Shown here in pieces: positions 48,550-60,505 of a DNA stretch of 64,000 bases. The DNA is from Acidobacteriaceae bacterium. GTDB taxonomy: Bacteria > Acidobacteriota > Terriglobia > Terriglobales > Acidobacteriaceae. Both the position numbers and the translations under genes were made by a program. The DNA lies in the NCBI GenBank assembly GCA_025462735.1, contig JAOAPC010000011.1, positions 248,001-312,000 on the forward strand, in the 5' to 3' direction. The notes below the pieces were generated by a model. The model saw only the letters and a list, made by a program, of their open reading frames with translations, ran no database searches and had not been told where the DNA came from. The first letter of the stretch is position 1, and each line of letters opens with the position of its first letter.

Positions 48550-49803
48550 CTACTCGAGTTCTCTCTCGCCGCCGAACAGGTCGGACATTACTTTCACGCT
48601 CGCGTCGCAGGCATGGTTCAGGCACGGCAGTCCCAAACCCGATTCAAGGGACTTCAACAAGGAAAAGTGGGTGTAAAACTGTCCACTTCGCACGCCGTGA
48701 AGGCCGTAATTCGTGTCCACGATTGTCAGTACCTGGTTGGTGTTCGGTGCCAGGCTATAGTCGTTTTCGTCCCACAGCACGACAATCGCATTGTTGCCAT
48801 TGTGCCATGCTCTGGAACTCTTGATCGCTGTTACCAGCCGTTGTACGGTCACGTCTCCCAGGTAAATGAGCGCTGGATTCAGCCCGGCTTGGCTCCCATC
48901 GCTAATCGGATCGAAGTTGCAGAATGCGCCGGCGTTGCCGCGGCCGTGCTGGTCATTGCACTGGTTCGGAGCAATAAACGAGAACGTCGGCACCTTGCCA
49001 GAGCCAAGGTCGGTATACAGACTTTCAAATCCGACGGTATTCGCTAAGCTGTTGTTCGGTTCTGTGCCTTCCTGTACGTTCTGGAAGTACGCGAACGGGT
49101 TGTGCTTCACAGCATATTGTTTTACGACGTCGCCCTGCGACAGCGGCGGATTCAATGTCGGGAAAATTTGAGTGAAGTCAGTGCTGTCGGTGTAGAAGCC
49201 GTCGCTGTAGTTCACATTGTCAGCGCCGCTGAGTGGCAGGCTTTCTTGATAGCTCTTCCAGCTCTTGTTCGCATTCACCAGTTGATCTCCAATCGTCTTG
49301 CCCAAGGTGTTATTGGCGGCTGGAATGGATAGTGTGCCATCAATATTATTTTCTCCAGGAGTTCCGCTCGTCTCGTTCGTGTAATCGATCGCCGGTGTCG
49401 CCGCGTCCGTCCCAGTCCCCGCAATCGGGCAAATCGCTGAGCTCGCCGGATTGTCAGTATCAGCGATTCCGGAGGCTAGGTTTGTGACGCAGGTCAGATT
49501 GTGCCAGTCTGGATTGTTGTCGCTATGCACTCCGAAATTCGATCCGCCCACGACCTCCAGGTAGTTGGTCAGACTGGGATGTGCGATCGCAAAGTAGTTG
49601 GTCGCGGTATTGGCTGATGCAGCATATTTATTAATGAACGGCGCATTCGGATTGCCCACGATTTGTCCGTAGCCATGATTCTCCATCATGATCACGAATA
49701 CGTGATCGAGGTGTGTTACGCCCTTGGGCACAGGCCCTTCGGCGGCAAACAGGGTGCTCGTGAAAGCAGCAGCAAGCAAAGAAAGAATTGCCTTTCTTGT
49801 CAT
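48550..49803 (-). CDS. Secreted phosphoesterase (phospholipase C / acid phosphatase superfamily)
   Basis: A 417-residue protein from ATG 49803 (GTG 49812 is possible). The Sec signal peptide spans MTRKAILSLLAAAFTSTLFA and ends near AAEG. The alkaline-phosphatase-like core shows HVFVIMMENHGYGQIVG (metal ligands and the Asn/Thr region), HPSLTNYLEVVGGS and VVLWDENDYS. These match the phosphoesterase family PF04185, which includes non-haemolytic phospholipase C and acid phosphatases. Likely role is phosphate scavenging outside the cell; substrate unknown. Confidence 0.88.
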   Translation of the reverse strand: MTRKAILSLLAAAFTSTLFAAEGPVPKGVTHLDHVFVIMMENHGYGQIVGNPNAPFINKYAASANTATNYFAIAHPSLTNYLEVVGGSNFGVHSDNNPDWHNLTCVTNLASGIADTDNPASSAICPIAGTGTDAATPAIDYTNETSGTPGENNIDGTLSIPAANNTLGKTIGDQLVNANKSWKSYQESLPLSGADNVNYSDGFYTDSTDFTQIFPTLNPPLSQGDVVKQYAVKHNPFAYFQNVQEGTEPNNSLANTVGFESLYTDLGSGKVPTFSFIAPNQCNDQHGRGNAGAFCNFDPISDGSQAGLNPALIYLGDVTVQRLVTAIKSSRAWHNGNNAIVVLWDENDYSLAPNTNQVLTIVDTNYGLHGVRSGQFYTHFSLLKSLESGLGLPCLNHACDASVKVMSDLFGGERELE

Positions 49804-50059
49804 AAAATTCACCTTTTCCAGGGATGAGAATTCGGGCGTCGCGCAGTGGTTTCTGCCCGCTAGCAGCCAACCTTATCAGCGGAATCGTGAGAAGAAAGTT
49901 AGGAAGAAGTTAAGGGTTAATGAATCTGGCGCCGAGTTGCGCGATTTGTTCCGATCGACCGCTCTTTCCCCTTACTCAAGAAGCTGTTAGGATATTTTCT
50001 GTCGCGAGCGGTAAATTCCGCACCATTGCTGGATTTTCCATCTCATCGATTTGGCGAGT

Positions 50060-50092
50060 GGGGACGTAGTTCAGTTGGTTAGAACGCTGCCC
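50060..50092 (+). tRNA. 5' half of a tRNA gene (Asp-like), cut at the anticodon loop
   Basis: GGGGACG-TA-GTTC...GAAC-G-CTGCC is a complete acceptor 5' strand, D arm and anticodon-stem 5' strand of a tRNA. After C32 the sequence departs: no U33, no matching GGCAG, and no T arm follows. The acceptor and D arm resemble tRNA-Asp. The break is 156 bases before an integrase start, so I read it as the attachment junction of the element to the right, with the missing half at the far end outside the window. The surrounding gap 49813-50248 holds no gene. Confidence 0.65.
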
Positions 50093-50248
50093 CCTAACCG
50101 CTTTTCTTTGTTTTCATACCCTTAGATCACTTCCTGTCCAGCTTCCTGTCCATAAAATCGCGACAACTGTGTCAATTCCTTCCACTCAGTTCCTTTATTT
50201 GACCGAGCCTGCAACCAACGTTATCTTCGGCGCCGCCACGAGGAAAAC

Positions 50249-51493
50249 ATGGCGAGACCGAAGCAATACGCAGAACGAGTCAACGTAGTGAAGTACATCA
50301 AGTCGGGCGATGCCTGGCGGTTTGCCCCTGTCATCGAGAGAAACGGGAAGATTGTGCGTGACCACGTGCTCATTGCAGGCCACGATGAATTGCACCCCGA
50401 AGGCACTTACTATCTGGAGTGGCGGATCGATCATCGCCGGCGGCGTAAAGCCATTTCAAACTTCACCGATCTCGTCGAGGAAGCTCGCCGCAAATCGATC
50501 GAACTGGACGCCAGGCGCGCCGGCGTGATCGCATCCCCAGCCCCGTCTCCATCGTCAGGTGCTGCCACAAGGCGGATGCGCGTGGCTTCAGCCATTGATA
50601 CCTACCTTGATTTCGTCAAACATCACCGAGCAGATCGGACATATCTGACGTATCGATACACGCTGAACGTACTGCTGCGCCAGTCCTGCTCGACTCCGTT
50701 TGTCGAAGACGTTTCGCGGGACGACATTTTGAAGTTCATGACCGACTGCTACAAGCTGGGTCTTGGCGGCCGGACCGTTTACGACAAGCTCGTCGTTGTT
50801 TTGCAAATGTTCAAGCGCTACGGCAGAACGAAACTGATTGAACCGAACGACTGGCCTGACTACGTCGATAAAATCCGCCCCATCTATGAACCGGAGGAAA
50901 TCCAGACACTGCTCCACCGTGCCGAGCCAGACGAGGCAATCTTTCTGAAATTCATGGTGGGTTCCGGCTTTCGTGACCGGGAAGCGCAGCATGTCACATG
51001 GCGTGACCTCGATTTTCATAACAGCGTGGTCCGCGTCACGGCAAAGCCCATCTGGGGCTTCAAGCCGAAGAACTGGGAGGAGAGGGCCGTGCCCTTGCCA
51101 ACGGCGCTGATCGATCAATTGCGGTTATTCAGAGAAGGCCGCAAGGGGCTGCCGGCGCAACTGGTTTTTCCCAATTCCAAGGGAAATCCTGATACAGAAA
51201 ATGACATGATCGTGAAACGTGTTGCCGAGCGCGCAAAACTGAATTGCGGCCAATGCCTCACCCGCCACGGCAATCGCTGCGCAGAAGGGCCTCACTGCCA
51301 GCATTTCTTCCTGCATAAGTTTCGGCACACCTTCGCGACAGAGCACTTGCGACATGGCGTTGACATCCGCACCCTGCAGAACTGGATGGGGCACAGGGAC
51401 ATTAAATCGACGATGGTCTACTTGAAAGGCGTGCAATCGAAAGACGCATTGGCCAAAGTCAATGCCGGAGCCCTGGCCGGATATGTGGCTTGA
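50249..51493 (+). CDS. Tyrosine recombinase/integrase with Cys/His insert
   Basis: A 414-residue integrase. An N-terminal SAM-like arm-binding domain covers about residues 110-200 and the catalytic domain about 215-405. Catalytic residues: Arg in GSGFRDREAQHVTW, HKFRHTFATEHL (HxxR), the late His in WMGHRD and the Tyr nucleophile in TMVYLKG. Between them, CGQCLTRHGNRCAEGPHCQH inserts four Cys and two His just before HxxR, suggesting a zinc-stabilised loop. Its position next to the cut tRNA makes it the enzyme that integrates the element. Confidence 0.93.
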   Translation: MARPKQYAERVNVVKYIKSGDAWRFAPVIERNGKIVRDHVLIAGHDELHPEGTYYLEWRIDHRRRRKAISNFTDLVEEARRKSIELDARRAGVIASPAPSPSSGAATRRMRVASAIDTYLDFVKHHRADRTYLTYRYTLNVLLRQSCSTPFVEDVSRDDILKFMTDCYKLGLGGRTVYDKLVVVLQMFKRYGRTKLIEPNDWPDYVDKIRPIYEPEEIQTLLHRAEPDEAIFLKFMVGSGFRDREAQHVTWRDLDFHNSVVRVTAKPIWGFKPKNWEERAVPLPTALIDQLRLFREGRKGLPAQLVFPNSKGNPDTENDMIVKRVAERAKLNCGQCLTRHGNRCAEGPHCQHFFLHKFRHTFATEHLRHGVDIRTLQNWMGHRDIKSTMVYLKGVQSKDALAKVNAGALAGYVA

Positions 51494-51804
51494 GCCCATT
51501 CGATGGAGGAAGTTGAATCCGCGGCCGTGGGGTCAAGACGCTGCATGAACAGATCTTATAACCACTTACAAATACGCAGGGACTGCCAAACGCCGCGCGA
51601 GTCTTACAAGACAGCGCATTTTGTTGGGTTGAGTGGTGGGTTGGGAAAATAGGGCACCACAGCGAAGAACCAATGCTCGCGTAAGCGGATAAGCGAAAAG
51701 GCTCCTTCTTGCTGTTTTCGTCGACCAAGTCTCCTTGCCTTGATTCCATCAACCTCACCGCGTGAACCTGGCAGTTTGCCTGGATCCATTTTCAGCTATC
51801 GCAG
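51494..51804. other. Intergenic stretch between integrase and cargo operon
   Basis: About 310 bases between convergent genes. No stem-loop with a T-tract, small gene or repeat was recognised. Confidence 0.4.
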
Positions 51805-52641
51805 TTAGATGAAGTCAGCCAGAAGTTGCTCAGCGCTCTGATAGCGCGCATCACGATCCTTTTGCAGCAATTTACCAATCACGGCGCAGAGAAGGTCTGG
51901 CAAGGTCGAGAGCCACTCGCGTGGATCAGGAGCTTCAAGCTCCACGATGTTGCGAAAGATGTTGACCCGTGGCAATGCCTCATTGAGAAAGGGGTGCTCT
52001 CCAGTTGCGCACTCGTACATCGTCATACCAAGGGAAAACAGGTCAGACCTGGGATCGAGTTCACGAGATGCCAGCATGATCTGCTCTGGCGAATAGTATG
52101 CCGGCGTACCTACAGGGCCACTTCCCGCGAAGCTAAGTGCCTCGCCATCGAGGTCCAACGCCAAACCTGCATCAATAAGCACGTAGGTTGACGAAGTCTG
52201 CTGCATTATGTTCATGGGCTTCACGTCTCGATGTACGTAACGGTTGGTCGCAAGTATCCGGAGAGCTTCTCCGACACACCGCCCGAGGGAGATAACCTGC
52301 TCCGGTCGCATGGGAATCCGCACGGATGCCAGGGGGACGCCATCAATGTACTCCTCAAGGAAATAAACCAGTTTCTCGCCAGTGGGGACAATCAACTCTC
52401 GGAGAGAAATCGGGCCCAACTTGGGTAAGTAAGGCGAGCTGCACCGTTGCATAATCTCAATCTCCCGCGCTACGCGACGCAACGCGCGGTCACTCGCCAT
52501 TATCGCTTTCAGGACATACGCCTGATTTTGAAATGCACAGGCCCAGACACTCTTTTGCCCGCCGATTTTGAGGTGCGGTCCCAGCGCTAGCCCCTGACAG
52601 TCGGCCACAAAGATTTGCCCATCAATCTGACTTAATTCCAT
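51805..52641 (-). CDS. Eukaryotic-type serine/threonine protein kinase in a ubiquitin-like operon
   Basis: A 278-residue kinase from ATG 52641, with GGAG 10 bases upstream and 13 bases after the E1-like stop; an open extension to 52698 overlaps that gene. Kinase residues: Lys45 (YVLKAI), Glu60 (REIEIM), HRDVKPMNIM (Asp139, Asn144), and the activation segment with SGPVGTPAYYSPEQ. The DFG motif reads DAG (Asp157-Ala-Gly), and the Gly-rich loop is reduced to KIGGQKSV. There is no membrane helix or sensor domain. It is the last gene of the operon, and could phosphorylate the conjugation proteins or an effector; this is inference. Confidence 0.88.
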   Translation of the reverse strand: MELSQIDGQIFVADCQGLALGPHLKIGGQKSVWACAFQNQAYVLKAIMASDRALRRVAREIEIMQRCSSPYLPKLGPISLRELIVPTGEKLVYFLEEYIDGVPLASVRIPMRPEQVISLGRCVGEALRILATNRYVHRDVKPMNIMQQTSSTYVLIDAGLALDLDGEALSFAGSGPVGTPAYYSPEQIMLASRELDPRSDLFSLGMTMYECATGEHPFLNEALPRVNIFRNIVELEAPDPREWLSTLPDLLCAVIGKLLQKDRDARYQSAEQLLADFI

Positions 52642-52654
52642 CTCACCGCACTCC

Positions 52655-53446
52655 TCAGAGCACTGGCTCGCCGACAAAGTCAGCGGCGAAGTGCGCACAA
52701 TGCTTTGGCGCGTATTCCAACCTCGGACTGCGAGTAATTACATGTTCGTTCGCGTCAAAATGGAGATACTCTGCTCGAAAGTGGCGGCGTTGCCACCCGG
52801 TCAGAAGCTCTACAAGTAGTCCGACCGCAACGCTCGCGAGCACACCGTTGGACCAAACGACTTGCGGCCTACCGCCAGCGGCGCCGTACAATTCTGCCTC
52901 TTGGCGCAGGTTTTCGTCGGTGAGGAAACCGAGGCAGCGGAAGCACGGACCACCAGGTACTGAGAGAATTACCTGTCCCGTCATGTGCGGCTGCTCGTTG
53001 ACCAGGTGAACATCCATCCCAATGTCGATCAGAGGCGTCAGAAACCGGCGAACACTGACTTCCAAGTCTTGGCGGGCGGCGTAAGAATCAAGGCAGCTGA
53101 TAACAACGTCCGCTTCGCGGAGCGCGTCCGCAGCCAGTTGCCACTGGACGGCATACGTGTGTACCTCTGCAGCGGGATTAATAGCAACAAACATTCGGCG
53201 GGCAATCTCCACCTTTTCCGTCCTCGCCCCTACATCCGCTGCTGTCCCACCAATGAGTCTGTTGAGATTACTCAATTCAAGACTGTCGGGATCAAAGAGC
53301 AACACGCGCCCAATGCCAATATGCGCTAGCTGCTGGGCAACATGCGAGCCACCGCCACCGAGGCCGACAATTGCGATCGTCGCATTCTGTAGTAGCTCTC
53401 CTGATTTCGCGCCTAGGAAAGACTGTCGGGTGTACTGATCCGTCAT
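52655..53446 (-). CDS. E1-like ThiF-family adenylyltransferase
   Basis: A 263-residue protein with the ThiF/MoeB/E1 fold. AIVGLGGGGSHVAQQL (residues 25-40) is the nucleotide-binding loop, LNRLIGG (Asn62-Arg63) supplies the adenylation arginine, Lys78 and SCLDSY (Asp120) complete the ATP site. GGPCFRC (Cys168, Cys171) and YAPKHCAHF at the C-terminus offer candidate catalytic or zinc cysteines. It overlaps the JAB gene by 4 bases. In this operon it is expected to adenylate the C-terminus of the ubiquitin-like protein. Confidence 0.9.
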   Translation of the reverse strand: MTDQYTRQSFLGAKSGELLQNATIAIVGLGGGGSHVAQQLAHIGIGRVLLFDPDSLELSNLNRLIGGTAADVGARTEKVEIARRMFVAINPAAEVHTYAVQWQLAADALREADVVISCLDSYAARQDLEVSVRRFLTPLIDIGMDVHLVNEQPHMTGQVILSVPGGPCFRCLGFLTDENLRQEAELYGAAGGRPQVVWSNGVLASVAVGLLVELLTGWQRRHFRAEYLHFDANEHVITRSPRLEYAPKHCAHFAADFVGEPVL

Positions 53447-53940
53447 GAGAGCACCTTGATGCGATCCCCAACTGAAGTTATGCGCGAGACGTCAACGCCA
53501 CTCGTTTCTAATGCCGTACCCCATACGCGGGCGTAGGCCCGGTCAACACTCATTACAAGGGCTCCGTGCAAACGCTCGGGACAGACATTCACAAAACAAG
53601 GCATCAGTTGCTGCATCTCACGTGTATCGACTCGACTCATGCGAGGCACACCTGCGTGCTCGTGGACATGTACGTGAAACACGCTTGCCTCTTCGGTAAG
53701 GGCCAGCTGCATTCCCGTTCTGATTGCGGTCGCATCAAAGCGTGCTCCCACTGACTTGTCCCGCAGATACCTGTCGTCTTCGATTGCGACGTACCGGTAG
53801 CCAAGAAGGAGGTATCCAGCGGGCACTCTGCTCTGCTTGCAGCACAAGAAGCCGATGCGCTCGTAGGCAAATGGATGTGGCCGGCGAAGATCCGCACGGA
53901 TCGCCTCGACCAGCGTCGTGAGCATCCGGAGGCGGATCAT
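53443..53940 (-). CDS. JAMM/JAB-domain isopeptidase
   Basis: A 165-residue protein; ATG 53925 is an alternative start. The JAMM zinc motif is complete: Glu27 (AYERIGF), His91-x-His93 (VFHVHVHEH), then eight residues, Ser102-x-x-Asp105 (MSRVD). RRPHPFAYERIGF is characteristic of the JAB proteins that sit in ubiquitin-like operons. It likely trims the ubiquitin-like precursor and/or removes it from targets, like Rpn11 or BilC. It overlaps both the E2 and the E1 genes by 4 bases. Confidence 0.88.
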   Translation of the reverse strand: MIRLRMLTTLVEAIRADLRRPHPFAYERIGFLCCKQSRVPAGYLLLGYRYVAIEDDRYLRDKSVGARFDATAIRTGMQLALTEEASVFHVHVHEHAGVPRMSRVDTREMQQLMPCFVNVCPERLHGALVMSVDRAYARVWGTALETSGVDVSRITSVGDRIKVLS

Positions 53941-54275
53941 AGTCTCAACCCTTTCAAGTGTCCGATCAACAATTCAATGGGTCGCAATCCATTGGGGACA
54001 CGCCAGGAGTACGCGAACCAATTGCGCTCGAAGATGCGTACGTTCTGCGTGTTCCAATTCCGACCGGTGGGAGCGTTCGCCACGCCGGCGAAAAATAGCC
54101 GGTTTTCGTAGCCGTCGCGGGCACCCATGCAAAGCAGGCAATCCATCACGTCCGGATTGCAGCCTGCAGGAAGTCGCAGGGATGGCAAGAAAACGTAATC
54201 GTTACCTGCTTCAGTGCACGCGCGCGCTTCGGGACAAAGGGCACGCAACTCGTCGATATGCGCTTCCGGGATCAT
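53937..54275 (-). CDS. E2-like protein (prokaryotic E2 family E type)
   Basis: A 112-residue protein. LPAGCNPDVMDCLLCMG corresponds to the first E2 strands, and IFERNWFAYSWRVPNGLRPI followed by HLKGL is the C-terminal signature of the Prok-E2_E family, which occurs with multiubiquitin, JAB and ThiF genes. Cysteines at 14, 20, 39, 46 and 49 are all in the N-terminal half; no Cys lies in the region where canonical E2s carry theirs, nor is there an HPN motif. Whether it is a true thioester carrier is open. It starts 2 bases after the ubiquitin-like stop and overlaps JAB. Confidence 0.75.
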   Translation of the reverse strand: MIPEAHIDELRALCPEARACTEAGNDYVFLPSLRLPAGCNPDVMDCLLCMGARDGYENRLFFAGVANAPTGRNWNTQNVRIFERNWFAYSWRVPNGLRPIELLIGHLKGLRL

Positions 54276-54277
54276 CG

Positions 54278-54532
54278 CTACGAGGATGCTCCCGCACGCG
54301 GATGGCTGACGAACCGCTCCCCACCTTTCAGCACGACATGCCCGTCATCGCGCAGTGGTGTTAGCGTGCCATTGACTATTTGCTCGAGTTCGTACGCGGC
54401 TGGAACGCCCCCTAGAGCCTTCAATTCAGAGACCGTGATGTCTCCGCGATGGACAGTGAAGGGCTTATTGTCAATGGTGATAGTTACATCAGGTCCAGCT
54501 TGGGGATTATCTGGGTGGTCAGGCTGTGCCAT
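54278..54532 (-). CDS. Ubiquitin-like protein, single multiubiquitin-family domain
   Basis: An 84-residue protein from ATG 54532; GTG 54568 is the only earlier in-frame start and adds a basic leader. Residues about 15-78 are a beta-grasp domain: VTITIDNKPFTVHRGDI, VSELKALGGVPAAYELE, then VVLKGGERFVSHP. This is the pattern of the Multi_ubiq family, usually present in tandem copies; here there is one. The C-terminus is RAGASS rather than GG, so processing to RAG or RAGA may be needed. The E2-like gene starts 2 bases after the stop. An operator-like sequence lies 53 bases upstream. Confidence 0.85.
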   Translation of the reverse strand: MAQPDHPDNPQAGPDVTITIDNKPFTVHRGDITVSELKALGGVPAAYELEQIVNGTLTPLRDDGHVVLKGGERFVSHPRAGASS

Positions 54533-54584
54533 ATTTTTGTTCCAACCTTTCTGGATCAGCCCTGGCACGCCAGTCAGCCGATCT

Positions 54585-54597
54585 GCTGATTAGCGTA
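54585..54597. promoter_or_regulatory. Operator-like site before the ubiquitin-like gene
   Basis: GCTGATTAGCGTA is identical to a site before the XRE repressor gene at 55662-55674; the match extends imperfectly to both sides. Its centre GCTgattAGC is an inverted repeat. It lies in the 94-base gap between the ImmA/IrrE stop and the ubiquitin-like start, so it may control an internal promoter. Confidence 0.65.
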
Positions 54598-54626
54598 TCG
54601 CAGTTCACAAAAAAATGCAAATCATC

Positions 54627-55340
54627 TCAGACGAGTCCAACTCCGAAATCTGAACCGACAAGGTTGCCGCGCTGTTGCAAACGTACCCGTGCCGCATCGC
54701 GTGAGACTTCATAAGCGGTGCACACCGTCTGAATGAGCGCTTGGCCCTCCCCGGAATTCAAACCAAACCTCGCTACGCTCAACCCGCATAAGTTAAGGAA
54801 ATCCCGGATCGTGGCCGCGAGCGCAGTTGCTGGCATGAGAAATGCTCCACAGGCGTATCCGGCTTGCCATTCAATCCAGTCTGTCTGCACAGTTTGTAAT
54901 ATTGCTGCACGAGTACACTTGTTGGACCGCGGTTCTGCCTGGACACTGAACAGATCACCGGATCGCTCCCCATCGAAGAGAGACGAGTGAAAGTGAACGT
55001 GACCCAGCTCGTGAGTCAGCGTTGTTCTGAACCGATTTGTCATTCGCATATCTTCCGTTAATCTCTTGGAAATTCTGACTTGTGGACGTTGATGCGGAAT
55101 AAAGTCAGTCACTCCTTCGACTTCGCCTTCTTCGCCAGACAGATCGGCGTACAGGTCAAGGCTGTCAGTCATGCTTTCCATGAGAACTGTAAGATCGTCG
55201 GTCGCGATCGGGTACGTAACGGAGCTATGGCGCGATTTCAGAAATGTCGCAACCAATTGTTCGCATTCTTCGTCGAGTTCCGCTGGTAAATAATGCGGCC
55301 GTTTTATGAATCTACCAGTACGATCCTTTACCCATTTCAT
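54627..55340 (-). CDS. ImmA/IrrE-family metalloprotease
   Basis: A 237-residue protein. LTHELGHVHFHSSLF contains the zinc motif HExxH (His110, Glu111, His114), and WIEWQAGYACGAFLMPATAL carries the downstream Glu and the conserved ALMP-like phrase of the family. It overlaps the XRE repressor gene by 4 bases. In ICEBs1 and Deinococcus, such proteases cleave the partner repressor (ImmR, DdrO) after DNA damage, so this is probably the release switch for the operon. Confidence 0.9.
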   Translation of the reverse strand: MKWVKDRTGRFIKRPHYLPAELDEECEQLVATFLKSRHSSVTYPIATDDLTVLMESMTDSLDLYADLSGEEGEVEGVTDFIPHQRPQVRISKRLTEDMRMTNRFRTTLTHELGHVHFHSSLFDGERSGDLFSVQAEPRSNKCTRAAILQTVQTDWIEWQAGYACGAFLMPATALAATIRDFLNLCGLSVARFGLNSGEGQALIQTVCTAYEVSRDAARVRLQQRGNLVGSDFGVGLV

Positions 55341-55648
55341 TTGATCGTCCGGCGGAACGCGCGGAAGGCGCGCTCGATGGCGTCAGGATCGGAATCGCTA
55401 AGCCGGGCTGCCAAATCGCTCGGGACGGTTCCCGCCGCAAGCAATAGGTAATCTTTGGAGAGCTCGAGCTCTTTAGCGAATTGTGCTATCAAATACTCCG
55501 AAGGGGGATTCCTGCGATCGCGCTCAATGTCGTTGAGGTATTGGGGCGAAATTGGCTGGCCATCTTCCTTCTTTATTCGTTCCGCCAGCGTCTTTTGGCT
55601 GATTCCCAATTTCTTGCGACCCTCTACAATAATCTGTCCAAATGACAT
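55337..55648 (-). CDS. XRE-family repressor
   Basis: A 103-residue protein with a Cro/CI helix-turn-helix in the first 65 residues (GRKKLGISQKTLAERI, SPQYLNDIERDRRNPP) and a helical C-terminal tail ending in ERAFRAFRRTIK, a possible cleavage or dimer region for the protease next to it. It is the first gene of the operon. The candidate operator lies 14-26 bases before its start codon, so it is likely autoregulated. Confidence 0.92.
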   Translation of the reverse strand: MSFGQIIVEGRKKLGISQKTLAERIKKEDGQPISPQYLNDIERDRRNPPSEYLIAQFAKELELSKDYLLLAAGTVPSDLAARLSDSDPDAIERAFRAFRRTIK

Positions 55649-55661
55649 AATCTCATTATCC

Positions 55662-55674
55662 GCTGATTAGCGTA
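55662..55674. promoter_or_regulatory. Operator-like site before the XRE repressor gene
   Basis: CGCTGATTAGCG is an inverted repeat (CGCT-gatt-AGCG), here followed by TA. The core GCTGATTAGCGTA recurs exactly at 54585-54597. The position right before the repressor start fits an autoregulatory site; TCATTATCC next to it could be part of a -10 region. Confidence 0.65.
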
Positions 55675-55812
55675 CCACGGACAAGTTTTTGGGATTGTCG
55701 TCGAAGATGACACCCAACCCGGCACTGCGGTCCCACGGGCCGGGGATCTCTTATAGAAGTGCTCTCCTGCCGATTTGCTCATTTGCAAATGCTGCAGTTC
55801 GGTCCCCCATTA

Positions 55813-56100
55813 TCAGACTGCGATCCGGGGCCGTTCGGGAGCGACTACAGGTTTTGGCATCTTTCGACGAAGCCATTCTGCAACAAGCGCGGGATCAAAA
55901 CGCACTGACGCCCCCACACGAAATGAAGGAATCGCTCCCTCCGCCGCCATCTTGTAAACATGCTGCCGGGTTACACCCAGCAGTTTTGCCAGTTCTCTCG
56001 CTCTCATGGCCCCGTCCCGGGCTTCCAATGCCTGAATGATCTTCGGTACAGCCGGGAATGTGCTGTCCAAAAAGCTGATCCGATCGACTGATCTCGTCAT
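55813..56100 (-). CDS. Excisionase-like helix-turn-helix protein
   Basis: A 95-residue protein with GGAG seven bases before ATG 56100. Residues about 30-80 are an HTH_17/MerR-type domain: MRARELAKLLGVTRQHVYKM, then GAIPSFRVGASVRFDPALVAEWL, the form seen in element excisionases (Xis). It is divergent from the secretion locus and may act as directionality factor, regulator of transfer genes, or both. Confidence 0.82.
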   Translation of the reverse strand: MTRSVDRISFLDSTFPAVPKIIQALEARDGAMRARELAKLLGVTRQHVYKMAAEGAIPSFRVGASVRFDPALVAEWLRRKMPKPVVAPERPRIAV

Positions 56101-56182
56101 CCGCTTTCTCCATCCTGCTCAGAGCGTTTTACGCCGAATCCGGATTTCAAGCAAAAATCACCCAAATCGAACCGCGATTTGA

Positions 56183-57664
<1,482 letters not shown>

Positions 57665-57672
<8 letters not shown>

Positions 57673-57702
57673 AAATCTGCCGAAATTTGTTTCATCTCAT
57701 AA
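57665..57702 (-). repeat. 37-41 bp palindromic repeat, copy A (start of virB9-like gene)
   Basis: Reverse complement matches the copy at 60232-60272 exactly over 35 bases. The copy includes the ATG of the VirB9-like gene and encodes its first residues MKICRNLFHLI. Confidence 0.85.
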
Positions 57703-58598
57703 CGCCCCTGGCATGCTTCGCCCTGGCGGCTGCACAAGCCGATCTCGCTCCAGGGAGGATTCTCAGCCTCAATCTGGATCCACAGAGCGTTACCACTCTC
57801 CAATTGCGACCTGGATTTGTAACGTCAGTTCGCCTGCCCGAAGCTGTCAGTTCCGTGGTCCTTGGTGATCCTGGTGCATTCAAAGCTGAACATTCGGAGG
57901 CCGAGCCGCAATTGGTGTTTTTTAAGCCCAGTACCCCCAGTGCGTCTCGCACCAATGCCTTAATCACAACCCGTACGGGCCGTGAAGTCTCTTTGGCGCT
58001 GGTAAGCCGAGGAACTGCGGATCGGTCGATGCCAGTCGATTACGTTCTGAAATACGAACCGCCGCGCAGTTTGTTTATTGAGGCGAGCCGTCCCAGTTTT
58101 GTGATCGAGGAGACAAAAAGCCTCGACTCGGCGAAATTGCCGGGAGCCAGCCCGCCGCAGCGAGACGCCATTGGTCCAGAGGAAAGCATGCTCCGAGATC
58201 AGCAAACCGAGCCTCCACATTGGGAAGGCGGGCAGTTGCGCGTAAGTGTTGGACGCTCTACCAAAAACGGCGATGAGCTCGCAGTGGCGTTCTCAGTGCT
58301 CAATGCCTCTGCGAATACGATCGAGTTACTTCCACCACAGATTGAGCTAACCGATACGATGAAGAACCGTCACCACAAGGCGATTAAGGCAGAGCCGGTG
58401 GCCATCAAGAGCTACCGACTGACATCCCGCAAATTGGCGCCGGGCGAGAGGGCCGATGGCGTCGCCATGTTCGAGAGACCCGCATTTAAAGCATCGTCGG
58501 AACGGCTGATGCTGCAAGTTGCACAAGTCGAACAGGTAGATCGCCCCGTGCTGGTGGCGGTGTCTTTTGTTCCAGCCGCCAAAGGAGGTGCGAGATGA
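57669..58598 (+). CDS. virB9: VirB9/TrbG-like secretion channel protein
   Basis: A 309-residue protein with a signal peptide (LITPLACFALAAAQA). The N-terminal half, LRPGFVTSVRLPEAVSSVVLGD and LVFFKPSTPSASRTNALITT, follows the VirB9/CagX pattern. The C-terminal beta domain (about 185-300, LRVSVGRSTKNGDELAVAFS) is less conserved. It is expected in the outer-membrane core complex with the VirB10-like protein. Its first eleven codons lie in a palindromic repeat that recurs at 60.1 and 60.2 kb. The start and stop overlap the neighbours. Confidence 0.75.
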
Positions 58599-59947
58599 CG
58601 CAGAACAATGGAAACAGAAACGATCACGCGACCCTCATCATGGAAGACCAAACTTCACCACAGGTGAGCGCGCCAACCGTGCAGCCGGATCTTGAAGCAG
58701 AAGCCGAATTGGCTACAAGAACCAAACTGCGGGCCAGGCAAAAGATCCGACAGAACCGGTTCGTGATTGTTGCCGCTGGTGCAGTCGTATTTGCGCTACT
58801 CATCTTTGCTGTTGTCTCTGCTCCGCGCATGTCCGTCCCGCGCAGTGGAAGCGCGCAGAAAGCATCAAGCAATCCTGCGAATGGCAATCGGGACGCGGAG
58901 TCTCAGGCGACATCTCCGGGCGAAAAAAGCCTCCTCCCGATCACCGATTCAGGACGTCCAGTTCCCAAAGAGGGCCGCGAGGGATATCTGAACGAACAGG
59001 ATCTCGAGCGAAGCGCTACCAAGAGATCGCCTACAAGAACTTTTACGCAGCCCGCGCAATCTGAAAACACTCCGGGCACATTAGGCTCCATTCCGCCGTT
59101 TGGCGAGCAGCCCTGGCAGGCTCCGCCATATCAGCCCGGCATGGTGCCGAATGTTGCGTCCGAGACCGCACAAAATAAGAGCGAGCGCGAGGCATTAGAG
59201 AAATCATCCCTGATATTTGTCCGAAATGTTTCCAGCGCTCCGCCTGCCGCCCAGCGCCACGAGGATACGACCGCTCTGACTGAATATGGCCTGGGTCTTC
59301 CAACGGGCACACGGCTTCGCGCACGACTGGAATCGTCAGCTAGCACGGCGGTGCGCACGCCGGTGCTGGCAGTGATTGAATACAACTATGAACGCGATGG
59401 AGAAATTATTGTTCCCGCGGGAGCCAAGGCGGTGGGGCAGATCCAGGAAGCGGACCGTTCCGGTTACATGAGAATCCAATTCGACTCCCTGATGTTGCCA
59501 GACGGAGCCACTGTTCCCATCCAGGCTGCTGCAACCGATCTCGCGATGAGTCCGGTCAAAGGCAAGGTCGAGGGCAAGAATACCGGCAAAAACGTACTTG
59601 TCCGTTCATTATCGGGAATAGGTCAAGCGGGCACCATGCTTCTCGGGCGTGGCAGCCTGAACCAACCATTGAGCGAATCCGACCTTATTCGCGAGCGGGT
59701 CAGCAACAATATCGGGCAGGCCTCCGACGAACAAATATCAAGGCTCGCCGTGACGGCTCGCATCGTTGTCAGCGTTTCAGCCGGCACACAGATCTATGTT
59801 GTGCTCGAACAATCGTCTAAATCTGTGCCGGCTTTCAGAGCCTCCACGTCAGACGCACAAGGAGCCAATTCGGAGAGTGTGGATCAGCTTCGACAGCTCT
59901 TGCGTTTGCAACAGGAATTAAACCAGACAGGCACAACAAATCAGTGA
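58595..59947 (+). CDS. virB10: VirB10/TrbI-like secretion channel protein
   Basis: A 450-residue protein with AAAGGAGG before ATG 58595. A cytoplasmic N-terminus is followed by one membrane helix (about residues 55-78, VIVAAGAVVFALLIFAVVSA), a Pro/Ser-rich periplasmic linker, and the VirB10 beta-barrel domain (about 215-420): LPTGTRLRARLESS, PVLAVIEYNYERDGEIIVPA, GAKAVGQIQEADRSGYMRI. VirB10 spans both membranes and links the ATPases to the outer-membrane core. Confidence 0.92.
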   Translation: MTQNNGNRNDHATLIMEDQTSPQVSAPTVQPDLEAEAELATRTKLRARQKIRQNRFVIVAAGAVVFALLIFAVVSAPRMSVPRSGSAQKASSNPANGNRDAESQATSPGEKSLLPITDSGRPVPKEGREGYLNEQDLERSATKRSPTRTFTQPAQSENTPGTLGSIPPFGEQPWQAPPYQPGMVPNVASETAQNKSEREALEKSSLIFVRNVSSAPPAAQRHEDTTALTEYGLGLPTGTRLRARLESSASTAVRTPVLAVIEYNYERDGEIIVPAGAKAVGQIQEADRSGYMRIQFDSLMLPDGATVPIQAAATDLAMSPVKGKVEGKNTGKNVLVRSLSGIGQAGTMLLGRGSLNQPLSESDLIRERVSNNIGQASDEQISRLAVTARIVVSVSAGTQIYVVLEQSSKSVPAFRASTSDAQGANSESVDQLRQLLRLQQELNQTGTTNQ

Positions 59948-60096: not shown

Positions 60097-60137
60097 TTAT
60101 AAGATGGAACAAATTTCGGCAGATTTTCATCTCATAT
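60097..60137 (+). repeat. Palindromic repeat, copy B
   Basis: Matches copy C at 39 of 41 bases, same orientation, 135 bases away. The long gap 59948-60505 carries copies B and C and otherwise no recognised gene; small frames there reproduce the start of the VirB9-like protein because the repeat encodes it. Confidence 0.85.
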
Positions 60138-60231
60138 CATCTTGCAACCGGCGAATGCCCGTTCAACTTTTGCTCAGACGAAAGACTCGCGGCTGTTTCA
60201 ATTCGTTAGCGTCGAGTGATTCATGTCCGGC

Positions 60232-60272
60232 TTATGAGATGAAACAAATTTCGGCAGATTTTCATCTCATAT
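60232..60272 (+). repeat. Palindromic repeat, copy C
   Basis: The cleanest copy: arms ATGAGATGAAA and TTTCATCTCAT pair perfectly (11 bp) around a 15-base loop containing TTTCGGCAGA. It could act as DNA (protein binding, transfer origin) or as an RNA hairpin. Confidence 0.88.
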
Positions 60273-60505
60273 CTTGGTTGAGTGGCAGCCACCTCAACTG
60301 CCATTCCTATAAGTCTCACTGAAAACCACGAATGTTGATAACACCACGACCGGCTGCAGATCGTCTCGCCCGCCATTGCCCGGTCCATATCTACTTTTGA
60401 ACACACCGAGTGGCTTGCTCATCATTTGATCGAAATCTGAAACCGACTTATGTTCTCGCCTGCAACGCGGGAAATTAGTTCAACGCGTCGCAGAAGAGGA
60501 CCTGC

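What the first reader, a model, noticed from the sequence alone, without database searches (positions are those of the whole stretch)
51805..55648. Ubiquitin-like conjugation operon with kinase, repressor and protease on a conjugative element
Seven minus-strand genes in order XRE, ImmA/IrrE, ubiquitin-like (Multi_ubiq), E2-like, JAMM/JAB, E1-like ThiF, Ser/Thr kinase. Overlaps are 4 bases (XRE/IrrE, E2/JAB, JAB/E1) and gaps 2 and 13 bases, except for 94 bases before the ubiquitin-like gene. Ubl-E2-JAB-E1 sets are known from comparative genomics, and the related BIL systems (BilA-D) act against phages. The addition of a eukaryotic-type kinase as last gene, and the XRE/IrrE switch at the front, make this version unusual. 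I infer an inducible defence or stress module.
Basis: partly seen in the sequence, partly recalled or inferred. Interest (0 to 1): 0.92.

Follow-up and report, generated by a model that had tools for sequence, protein, structure and literature searches.

The report
Bacterial ubiquitin-like operon with protein kinase
A bacterium's mobile element carries a known kind of bacterial ubiquitin-like tagging system under a known type of protease-repressor switch, but with an extra protein kinase that has stayed attached to it in a few relatives and may add a new layer of control.

Summary
In detail: seven minus-strand genes with the stated order, overlaps and gaps. The core is a Bub-type (bacterial ubiquitination-like) operon: the Ubl matches Multi_ubiq, the E2 model's best PDB match is Citrobacter BubB (Z 11.4, next 6.3), and JAB and E1 best match Citrobacter BubCD. 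The XRE/IrrE pair is not unusual: it resembles CapH/CapP, published Bub regulators (PMC13373217), and 50 of 81 loci (window included) have a similar protease gene upstream. A 17-base site lies before xre and before the Ubl gene, nowhere else in this assembly at up to 1 mismatch, and at the same places in relative L096. The kinase is the new part. L096, from another family of the class, has the same seven genes in the same order (57-76% protein identity); a third, damaged or misassembled locus keeps JAB-E1-kinase. Their three E1s form one clade (SH-aLRT 100). The link is rare: 1 of 80 loci of the E1 scan. Function is inference: an inducible protein-tagging stress or defence module with a kinase as control or effector arm. 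New variant of a known kind.

The parts
55337..55648 (-). XRE-type repressor (CapH-like)
   Evidence: HTH_3 3e-9; PADLOC HTH_VI 1e-7, capH 9e-5; 76% identical to its counterpart in L096
54627..55340 (-). ImmA/IrrE (M78) metallopeptidase with HELGH motif (CapP-like)
   Evidence: Peptidase_M78 2e-5; PADLOC capP 4e-7, RmrA 3e-6; 60% identical in L096
54278..54532 (-). Ubiquitin-like protein (BubA-like), one beta-grasp domain, C-terminus AGASS
   Evidence: Multi_ubiq 3e-8; G-x-S-S end in 65 of 87 listed Ubl frames
53937..54275 (-). E2-like protein (BubB-like) without a conserved cysteine
   Evidence: AF2 pLDDT 95; best PDB fold BubB 9eae_C; alignment A5
53443..53940 (-). JAB/JAMM protease (BubC-like)
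   Evidence: E27, H91, H93, S102, D105 invariant in 28 sequences; AF2 pLDDT 94; best PDB fold BubCD 9ea4
52655..53446 (-). E1/ThiF-type adenylating enzyme (BubD-like); invariant cysteines only C168, C171, C250, read as zinc ligands
   Evidence: ThiF 7e-37; BubCD best PDB hit, E 1e-25; alignment A9 of 34 sequences
51805..52641 (-). Hanks-type Ser/Thr kinase, 13 bases after the E1 gene; Lys, HRD and DAG motifs present
   Evidence: Pkinase 5e-27; alignment of four kinases; same place in L096 and L011
55658..55674 (-). Operator-like site TACGCTAATCAGCGGAT just before xre
   Evidence: One of only two such sites in the assembly at up to 1 mismatch; same place in L096
54581..54597 (-). Operator-like site TACGCTAATCAGCAGAT before the Ubl gene, at a possible -10 position
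50249..51493 (+). Tyrosine integrase of the mobile element
   Evidence: Phage_integrase 1.5e-23
50060..50092 (+). First 33 bases of a tRNA-Asp gene, likely integration site
   Evidence: Identical to an intact tRNA-Asp on another contig up to this point
55813..56100 (-). AlpA/excisionase-type HTH protein
   Evidence: HTH_17 1.6e-11, excise 2e-12
57166..59947 (+). Type IV secretion-type genes: SLT transglycosylase, CagX/VirB9-like, TrbI/VirB10-like
   Evidence: SLT 1e-24, CagX 9e-7 (below cut-off), TrbI 5e-10

Best explanation
This is a Bub-type ubiquitin-like conjugation operon on an integrative element with type IV secretion-type genes, controlled by a CapH+CapP-like repressor/protease pair and extended by a Hanks-type kinase. 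Proposed working: the XRE protein sits on two sites, before its own gene and before the Ubl gene, and keeps both promoters low. On DNA damage or infection the M78 protease cuts the repressor (inferred from CapH/CapP). The five-gene transcript Ubl-E2-JAB-E1-kinase is made: JAB trims the Ubl tail at its G-x-S-S end, E1 adenylates it, and the E1/E2 pair, which has no conserved catalytic cysteine, attaches it to target proteins. The kinase phosphorylates a pathway component or a target and so gates or carries out the response. Shown: gene and fold identities, the two shared sites, the conserved place of the kinase in one clade. Inferred: repressor binding, induction signal, tail cleavage, conjugation, kinase substrate, benefit to the host.
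For: Core: best PDB relatives of E1, JAB and E2 are BubCD and BubB; Ubl is Multi_ubiq; all four core genes were found together in 79 of 83 loci. Switch: PADLOC capH and capP matches; M78 protease with HExxH upstream in 50 of 81 loci; two sites found only here in the 4.36 Mb assembly at up to 1 mismatch and at both positions in L096. Kinase: same seven genes in L096, 57-76% identical; JAB-E1-kinase in L011; E1s of the three in one clade, SH-aLRT 100; of 4 genomes in 399 with this kinase at E <= 1e-40, 3 have it next to the E1 gene; Lys, HRD and DAG kept in all four. No such site lies before the kinase and the gap is 13 bases, so a shared transcript is likely.
Against: The capH match is weak (9e-5; HTH_VI is better) and the capP match moderate, with RmrA close behind. 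L011, one of the three kinase loci, has only the C-terminal part of the E2, joined in frame to what reads as a TonB-receptor stretch, no Ubl hit and no site: a broken copy or an assembly chimera. Only 1 of 80 loci of the E1 scan (L011) has a kinase directly after the E1 gene (three end within 100 bases of it), so Bub operons do not need it. L098's related kinase (42%) has no Ubl genes near. L096 was found through its kinase. BubCD lacks the CxxC seen here at the aligned place, so the chemistry may differ.
Confidence: 0.7

Rival explanations
1. The kinase is an independent toxic or defence kinase that shares the transcript but does not act on the Ubl pathway.
For: It matches PADLOC PD-T4-6 profiles (8e-36), a single-gene defence kinase (recalled); a 42% relative stands without Ubl genes; other related operons are followed by unrelated defence-type genes such as IetAS.
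Against: Same place, strand and close spacing in three loci whose E1s are only 61-64% identical to the window's. The PD-T4-6 profiles also match the quite different L060 kinase, so the match is not specific.
Confidence: 0.3
2. The XRE/ImmA pair is the mobile element's own excision/transfer switch (as ImmR/ImmA of ICEBs1, recalled), and the Ubl genes are cargo next to it.
For: The pair lies between an integrase and type IV secretion-type genes, next to an excisionase-type gene.
Against: The site occurs only before xre and before the Ubl gene, not at the integrase, excisionase or secretion genes. Pair and both sites stand with the Ubl genes in L096 too, and M78 genes stand upstream of Ubl operons in 50 of 81 loci.
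Confidence: 0.12
3. The Ubl is a sulfur carrier (ThiS/MoaD-like) in a metabolic pathway rather than a protein tag.
For: E1 is in the ThiF/MoeB superfamily.
Against: The Ubl ends in AGASS, not GG; an E2-fold protein and a JAB protease are present, nearest to BubB and BubCD; no sulfur-metabolism gene in the operon.
Confidence: 0.03

Closest known systems
Bub (bacterial ubiquitination-like) operons; Citrobacter BubA, BubB, BubCD (PDB 9ea4, 9ea5, 9ea8, 9eae, 9eav)
   Same: E2, JAB and E1 have BubB and BubCD as nearest solved relatives; Ubl is Multi_ubiq; CapH/CapP-like pair upstream.
   Different: JAB and E1 are separate genes here; E1 has a CxxC where BubCD has none in the alignment (the C-x-H part was not aligned); extra kinase. 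Whether the Bub authors count this subgroup could not be checked: their papers are not held.
CapH+CapP regulators (PMC13373217 and papers cited there)
   Same: XRE repressor gene next to an M78 protease gene, in front of an immune-type operon.
   Different: Same direction as the operon, with a second site before the Ubl gene; among the 50 loci with the protease, 44 have it on the opposite strand.
Class 6e operons of PMC1779556 (polyUbl, inactive E2/RWD-like protein, JAB fused to E1, metal-binding protein)
   Same: Multi_ubiq-type Ubl, E2-like protein without conserved cysteine, JAB and E1.
   Different: JAB not fused to E1, one Ubl domain, no metal-binding protein in the operon.
BIL (BilA-D)
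   Same: Ubl-E1-E2-JAB theme (recalled).
   Different: E2 here has no conserved cysteine; nearest folds are Bub.

Membership tests
Bub operon | Multi_ubiq/beta-grasp Ubl (BubA) | tested here: met
   PF14452 3e-8, over cut-off; the only one in the genome
Bub operon | E2-fold partner BubB | tested here: met
   AF2 model; 9eae_C Z 11.4, rmsd 2.9 over 109, next 6.3; Foldseek E 1.4e-3. No sequence hit in the PDB
Bub operon | JAB protease BubC with JAMM motif | tested here: met
   E, H, H, S, D invariant in 28 sequences; fold TM 0.79 to BubCD; sequence hit only 0.007
Bub operon | E1 BubD | tested here: met
   BubCD is the best PDB hit, 1e-25; ThiF/MoeB 2e-17 and weaker
Bub operon | Bub-type conjugation chemistry | not testable with these tools
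   Needs biochemistry; no conserved E2 cysteine and no spare invariant E1 cysteine would fit a non-cysteine route
CapH+CapP switch | XRE protein next to M78 protease with HExxH | tested here: met
   HELGH in the sequence
CapH+CapP switch | Repressor site at the operon promoter | tested here: inconclusive
   Conserved 17-base site at both promoters, unique in the assembly; binding not tested
CapH+CapP switch | ssDNA-activated cleavage of the repressor | not testable with these tools
   Needs biochemistry
BIL | E2 with catalytic cysteine (recalled) | tested here: not met
   The only candidate, C49, is absent in 9 of 32 sequences, among them L096, the closest full operon
Class 6e of PMC1779556 | JAB fused to E1, and a metal-binding protein gene | tested here: not met
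   Separate genes; no such gene in the operon
Active Hanks kinase | Lys, HRD-Asp and DxG motifs | tested here: met
   VLK, HRDVKPMN, DAGLA in the window; the same Lys, HRD and DAG in L096, L011 and L098

The most novel reading that the evidence does not exclude
Phosphorylation and ubiquitin-like conjugation are wired together in one damage-inducible bacterial operon: the kinase gates the Bub enzymes or acts on Ubl-tagged targets, a bacterial counterpart of eukaryotic phospho-ubiquitin cross-talk.
Probability: 0.3. Interest if true: 0.78.

Novelty: new variant of a known kind. Interest (0 to 1): 0.52.

Why it matters
[quoted passage not shown] A lineage that has kept a kinase at the end of the operon gives a handle: its substrate may reveal what the pathway acts on. 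The two conserved sites give a simple reporter for the inducing signal. IetAS-like genes directly downstream of eight related operons point to defence.

Tried and rejected
Rejected: that XRE/IrrE makes the operon unusual; that the kinase is unique to this genome; BIL membership; a sulfur-carrier role; the pair as the element's own switch.

Led nowhere: PDB sequence searches with E2 (none), Ubl (one hit at 0.8) and the single M78 protein (one hit at 0.005). Kinase on plasmids at 1e-20 and E1 on phages at 1e-15: no match. Viral contigs: one E1 relative, L095, a Ubl operon without kinase. Rfam, 49500-57000: none. Promoter and terminator scans: 4 and 9 sites against 3.3 and 4.7 in shuffles; the Ubl promoter was not among them. 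The 3' half of the split tRNA-Asp: the single hit is the intact gene. Empty site: the neighbouring gene was found in 1 of 26 genomes, the own one. Equivalence of invariant E1 Tyr187 with BubCD Tyr370 (mutated in 9eav by its title) is a guess and was not tested.

Limits and rows left out: the E1 scan kept the best 80 of 124 relatives. Neighbourhoods were read in 83 loci (window, L096, L011-L090, L095); L001-L010, L091-L094 and L097-L103 were left out, most of them short or copies, L099 and L103 without such a reason. E1 tree: quick method, SH-aLRT only; left out L001-L006, L092, L093, L097, L100, L101 and loci without an E1 hit; four pairs of identical rows remain; L007 and L009 have long branches, L099 is 33% filled. 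Gene calls are my own ORF rules. Of 54 M78 hits, 4 without HExxH were not counted; the 81 loci include the window and L096. The Ubl ends (87 frames) include a few wrong frames (such as L018's second and L059) and near-copies. In some searches at most 6 candidates per genome were scored, so those counts are lower bounds.

Papers: PMC13373217, passages; PMC1779556, passages and table rows; other papers, search listings only. Ye 2026 and Gong 2025: only their entries in a reference list were seen. Searches that bear on a Hanks kinase with Bub operons are (20 of 819 listed) and the text search; none showed one, but the two main Bub papers could not be read, so I do not claim absence from print.
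Full report
Observation. Five pass Pfam cut-offs; E2 and JAB match nothing on their own in Pfam, NCBIfam or PADLOC. Scanning relatives changes little: of 31 E2 sequences one matches Prok-E2_E at 0.14 and one E1-N at 0.02; of 22 JAB sequences four match Prok-JAB, best 1e-4.

Core identity. A phylum search with the JAB protein hit 9 of 396 genomes, own included; L003-L006 from it show the same Ubl-E2-JAB-E1 set, and an E1 profile was made from them and the window. A scan of genome contigs with it returned the best 80 of 124 relatives, from many phyla. With own profiles all four core genes were found in 79 of 83 loci; JAB and E1 are one protein in 10 of them, Bacteroidota and Melainabacteria. The E1 profile's best solved relative is Citrobacter BubCD (1e-25), ahead of ThiF and MoeB (2e-17 and weaker). 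Structure models of E2 (pLDDT 95) and JAB (94) have BubB and BubCD as best folds; the Foldseek E-value for BubB is only 1.4e-3, but the second aligner gives Z 11.4 against 6.3 for the next chain. So the core is Bub-like: BubA Ubl, BubB E2, BubC JAB, BubD E1. On plasmids 20 records have an E1 match, 17 of them predicted conjugative or mobilizable; in the three regions I opened the genes are annotated as multiubiquitin, hypothetical and ThiF proteins.

Chemistry hints. In 32 E2 sequences the invariant residues are Y56, W74, W86, S90 and L107; C49 is present in 23 and absent in 9, L096 among them. In 34 E1 sequences the only invariant cysteines are C168, C171 and C250, with H252, which look like zinc ligands; Y187 is also invariant. 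Of 87 listed Ubl frames 65 end exactly in G-x-S-S: GGSS 29, GQSS 10, GASS 10, GHSS 8, GSSS 5, GTSS 2, GKSS 1. This suggests cleavage by JAB near that glycine and a route without a conserved cysteine; both are inference.

Switch. The XRE protein matches PADLOC HTH_VI (1e-7) and capH (9e-5), the M78 protein capP (4e-7) and RmrA (3e-6); the L096 pair matches capH at 9e-4 and capP at 6e-6. PMC13373217 reports that 219 of 544 Bub operons have CapW or CapH+CapP. In my set 50 of 81 loci with an upstream gene, window and L096 included, have an M78 protease with HExxH among the three upstream genes, 6 in the operon's direction and 44 opposite. The site TACGCTAATCAGC(G/A)GAT occurs before xre and before the Ubl gene: two matches with up to 3 mismatches in the window against 0.07 expected, and only these two in the 4.36 Mb assembly with up to 1 mismatch. 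L096 has the same two places with one and two mismatches; L011, which lacks the front of the operon, has none. TTGCAT lies 17 bases before TACGCT at the Ubl gene (read), so the site may cover the -10; the consensus scan did not list this promoter but found TTGTCC-18-GATAAT before xre, which the site overlaps.

Kinase. In the class, 4 of 399 genomes hold a kinase at E <= 1e-40: the window's, L096 (58%), L097 (54%, same contig as L011) and L098 (42%). L096, from another family, has the complete seven-gene operon, proteins 76, 60, 66, 61, 57, 61 and 58% identical in operon order. L011 has JAB, E1 and kinase, but only the last part of the E2, joined to what I read as a TonB-receptor stretch, and no Ubl hit: broken or misassembled. 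L098's kinase has no Ubl genes near. A second sample found the kinase only in the window's genome (1 of 396); in L096's order only L096's genome has it (1 of 40). On an E1 tree of 89 rows the three kinase loci form one clade, SH-aLRT 100, one change needed. L096 was found through its kinase, so the unbiased rate is 1 of 80 in the E1 scan; L019, L030 and L070 end within 100 bases of the E1 gene. Four more of these 80 have some kinase hit at a distance: L029, L060, L084 and L020. The kinase keeps Lys, HRD and DAG and lies 13, 18 and 21 bases after the E1 gene in window, L096 and L011.

Other neighbours. Eight related operons are followed by an AAA ATPase and a subtilase; the pair in L057 matches IetA (5e-76) and IetS (4e-38), the other seven are similar to it. 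Three Melainabacteria/Cyanobacteria loci have a DisA-type cyclase gene there. In Mucilaginibacter (L029) a 154-residue protein and a different kinase follow; the same pair lies upstream in Paraburkholderia (L060), whose kinase best matches MAD6 (2e-53) and is 45% identical to L029's. So accessory genes vary by lineage, and kinases may have been recruited more than once.

Element. The integrase at 50249-51493 begins about 157 bases after the first 33 bases of a tRNA-Asp gene at 50060, identical to an intact copy on contig C16 and split in the anticodon arm. The operon lies between integrase and excisionase-type gene; secretion-type genes follow. The contig ends at base 314342 with a long frame that I read as VirB4-like, not profile-tested. 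The genes scanned left of 50 kb look chromosomal.

Verdict. A known kind of system with a known kind of switch, plus a rare, clade-specific kinase kept in the same order with the rest. Interest 0.52. Everything beyond gene and fold identities, sites and linkage is inference.

Noticed in passing
window 50060-50092: First 33 bases of a tRNA-Asp gene, split in the anticodon arm next to the integrase; the other half was not found elsewhere in the assembly apart from the intact gene.
   Followed up: partly
L057:8879-12426 and the same place in L037, L039, L040, L061, L062, L073, L086: IetAS-like ATPase and subtilase pair directly after the E1 gene in eight related operons; PADLOC-tested in L057 only, the rest by similarity.
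   Followed up: partly
L022:8904-10355, L023, L025: DisA-type diadenylate cyclase with sensor domains directly after the Ubl operon (Pfam on L022).
   Followed up: partly
L029:8865-10393 and L060:4427-5906: A 152-154 residue protein without Pfam match paired with a kinase (MAD6-like in L060) beside Ubl operons in two phyla; the small protein also occurs in 5 plasmid records of Klebsiella (2), E. coli, Providencia and Mesorhizobium.
   Followed up: partly
Ubl C-termini, 87 frames: G-x-S-S end in 65 of 87 instead of GG, with x = G, Q, A, H, S, T or K.
   Followed up: partly
window 60097-60273: Two copies of a 42-base repeat, 135 bases apart, inside the element.
   Followed up: no
L011:6147-7505: C-terminal part of the E2 joined in frame to what reads as a TonB-receptor stretch: broken gene or assembly chimera.
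   Followed up: no
L098:7816-9996: A 42% relative of the kinase followed about 10 bases later by a 396-residue protein without PADLOC match: perhaps another partner for this kinase type.
   Followed up: no
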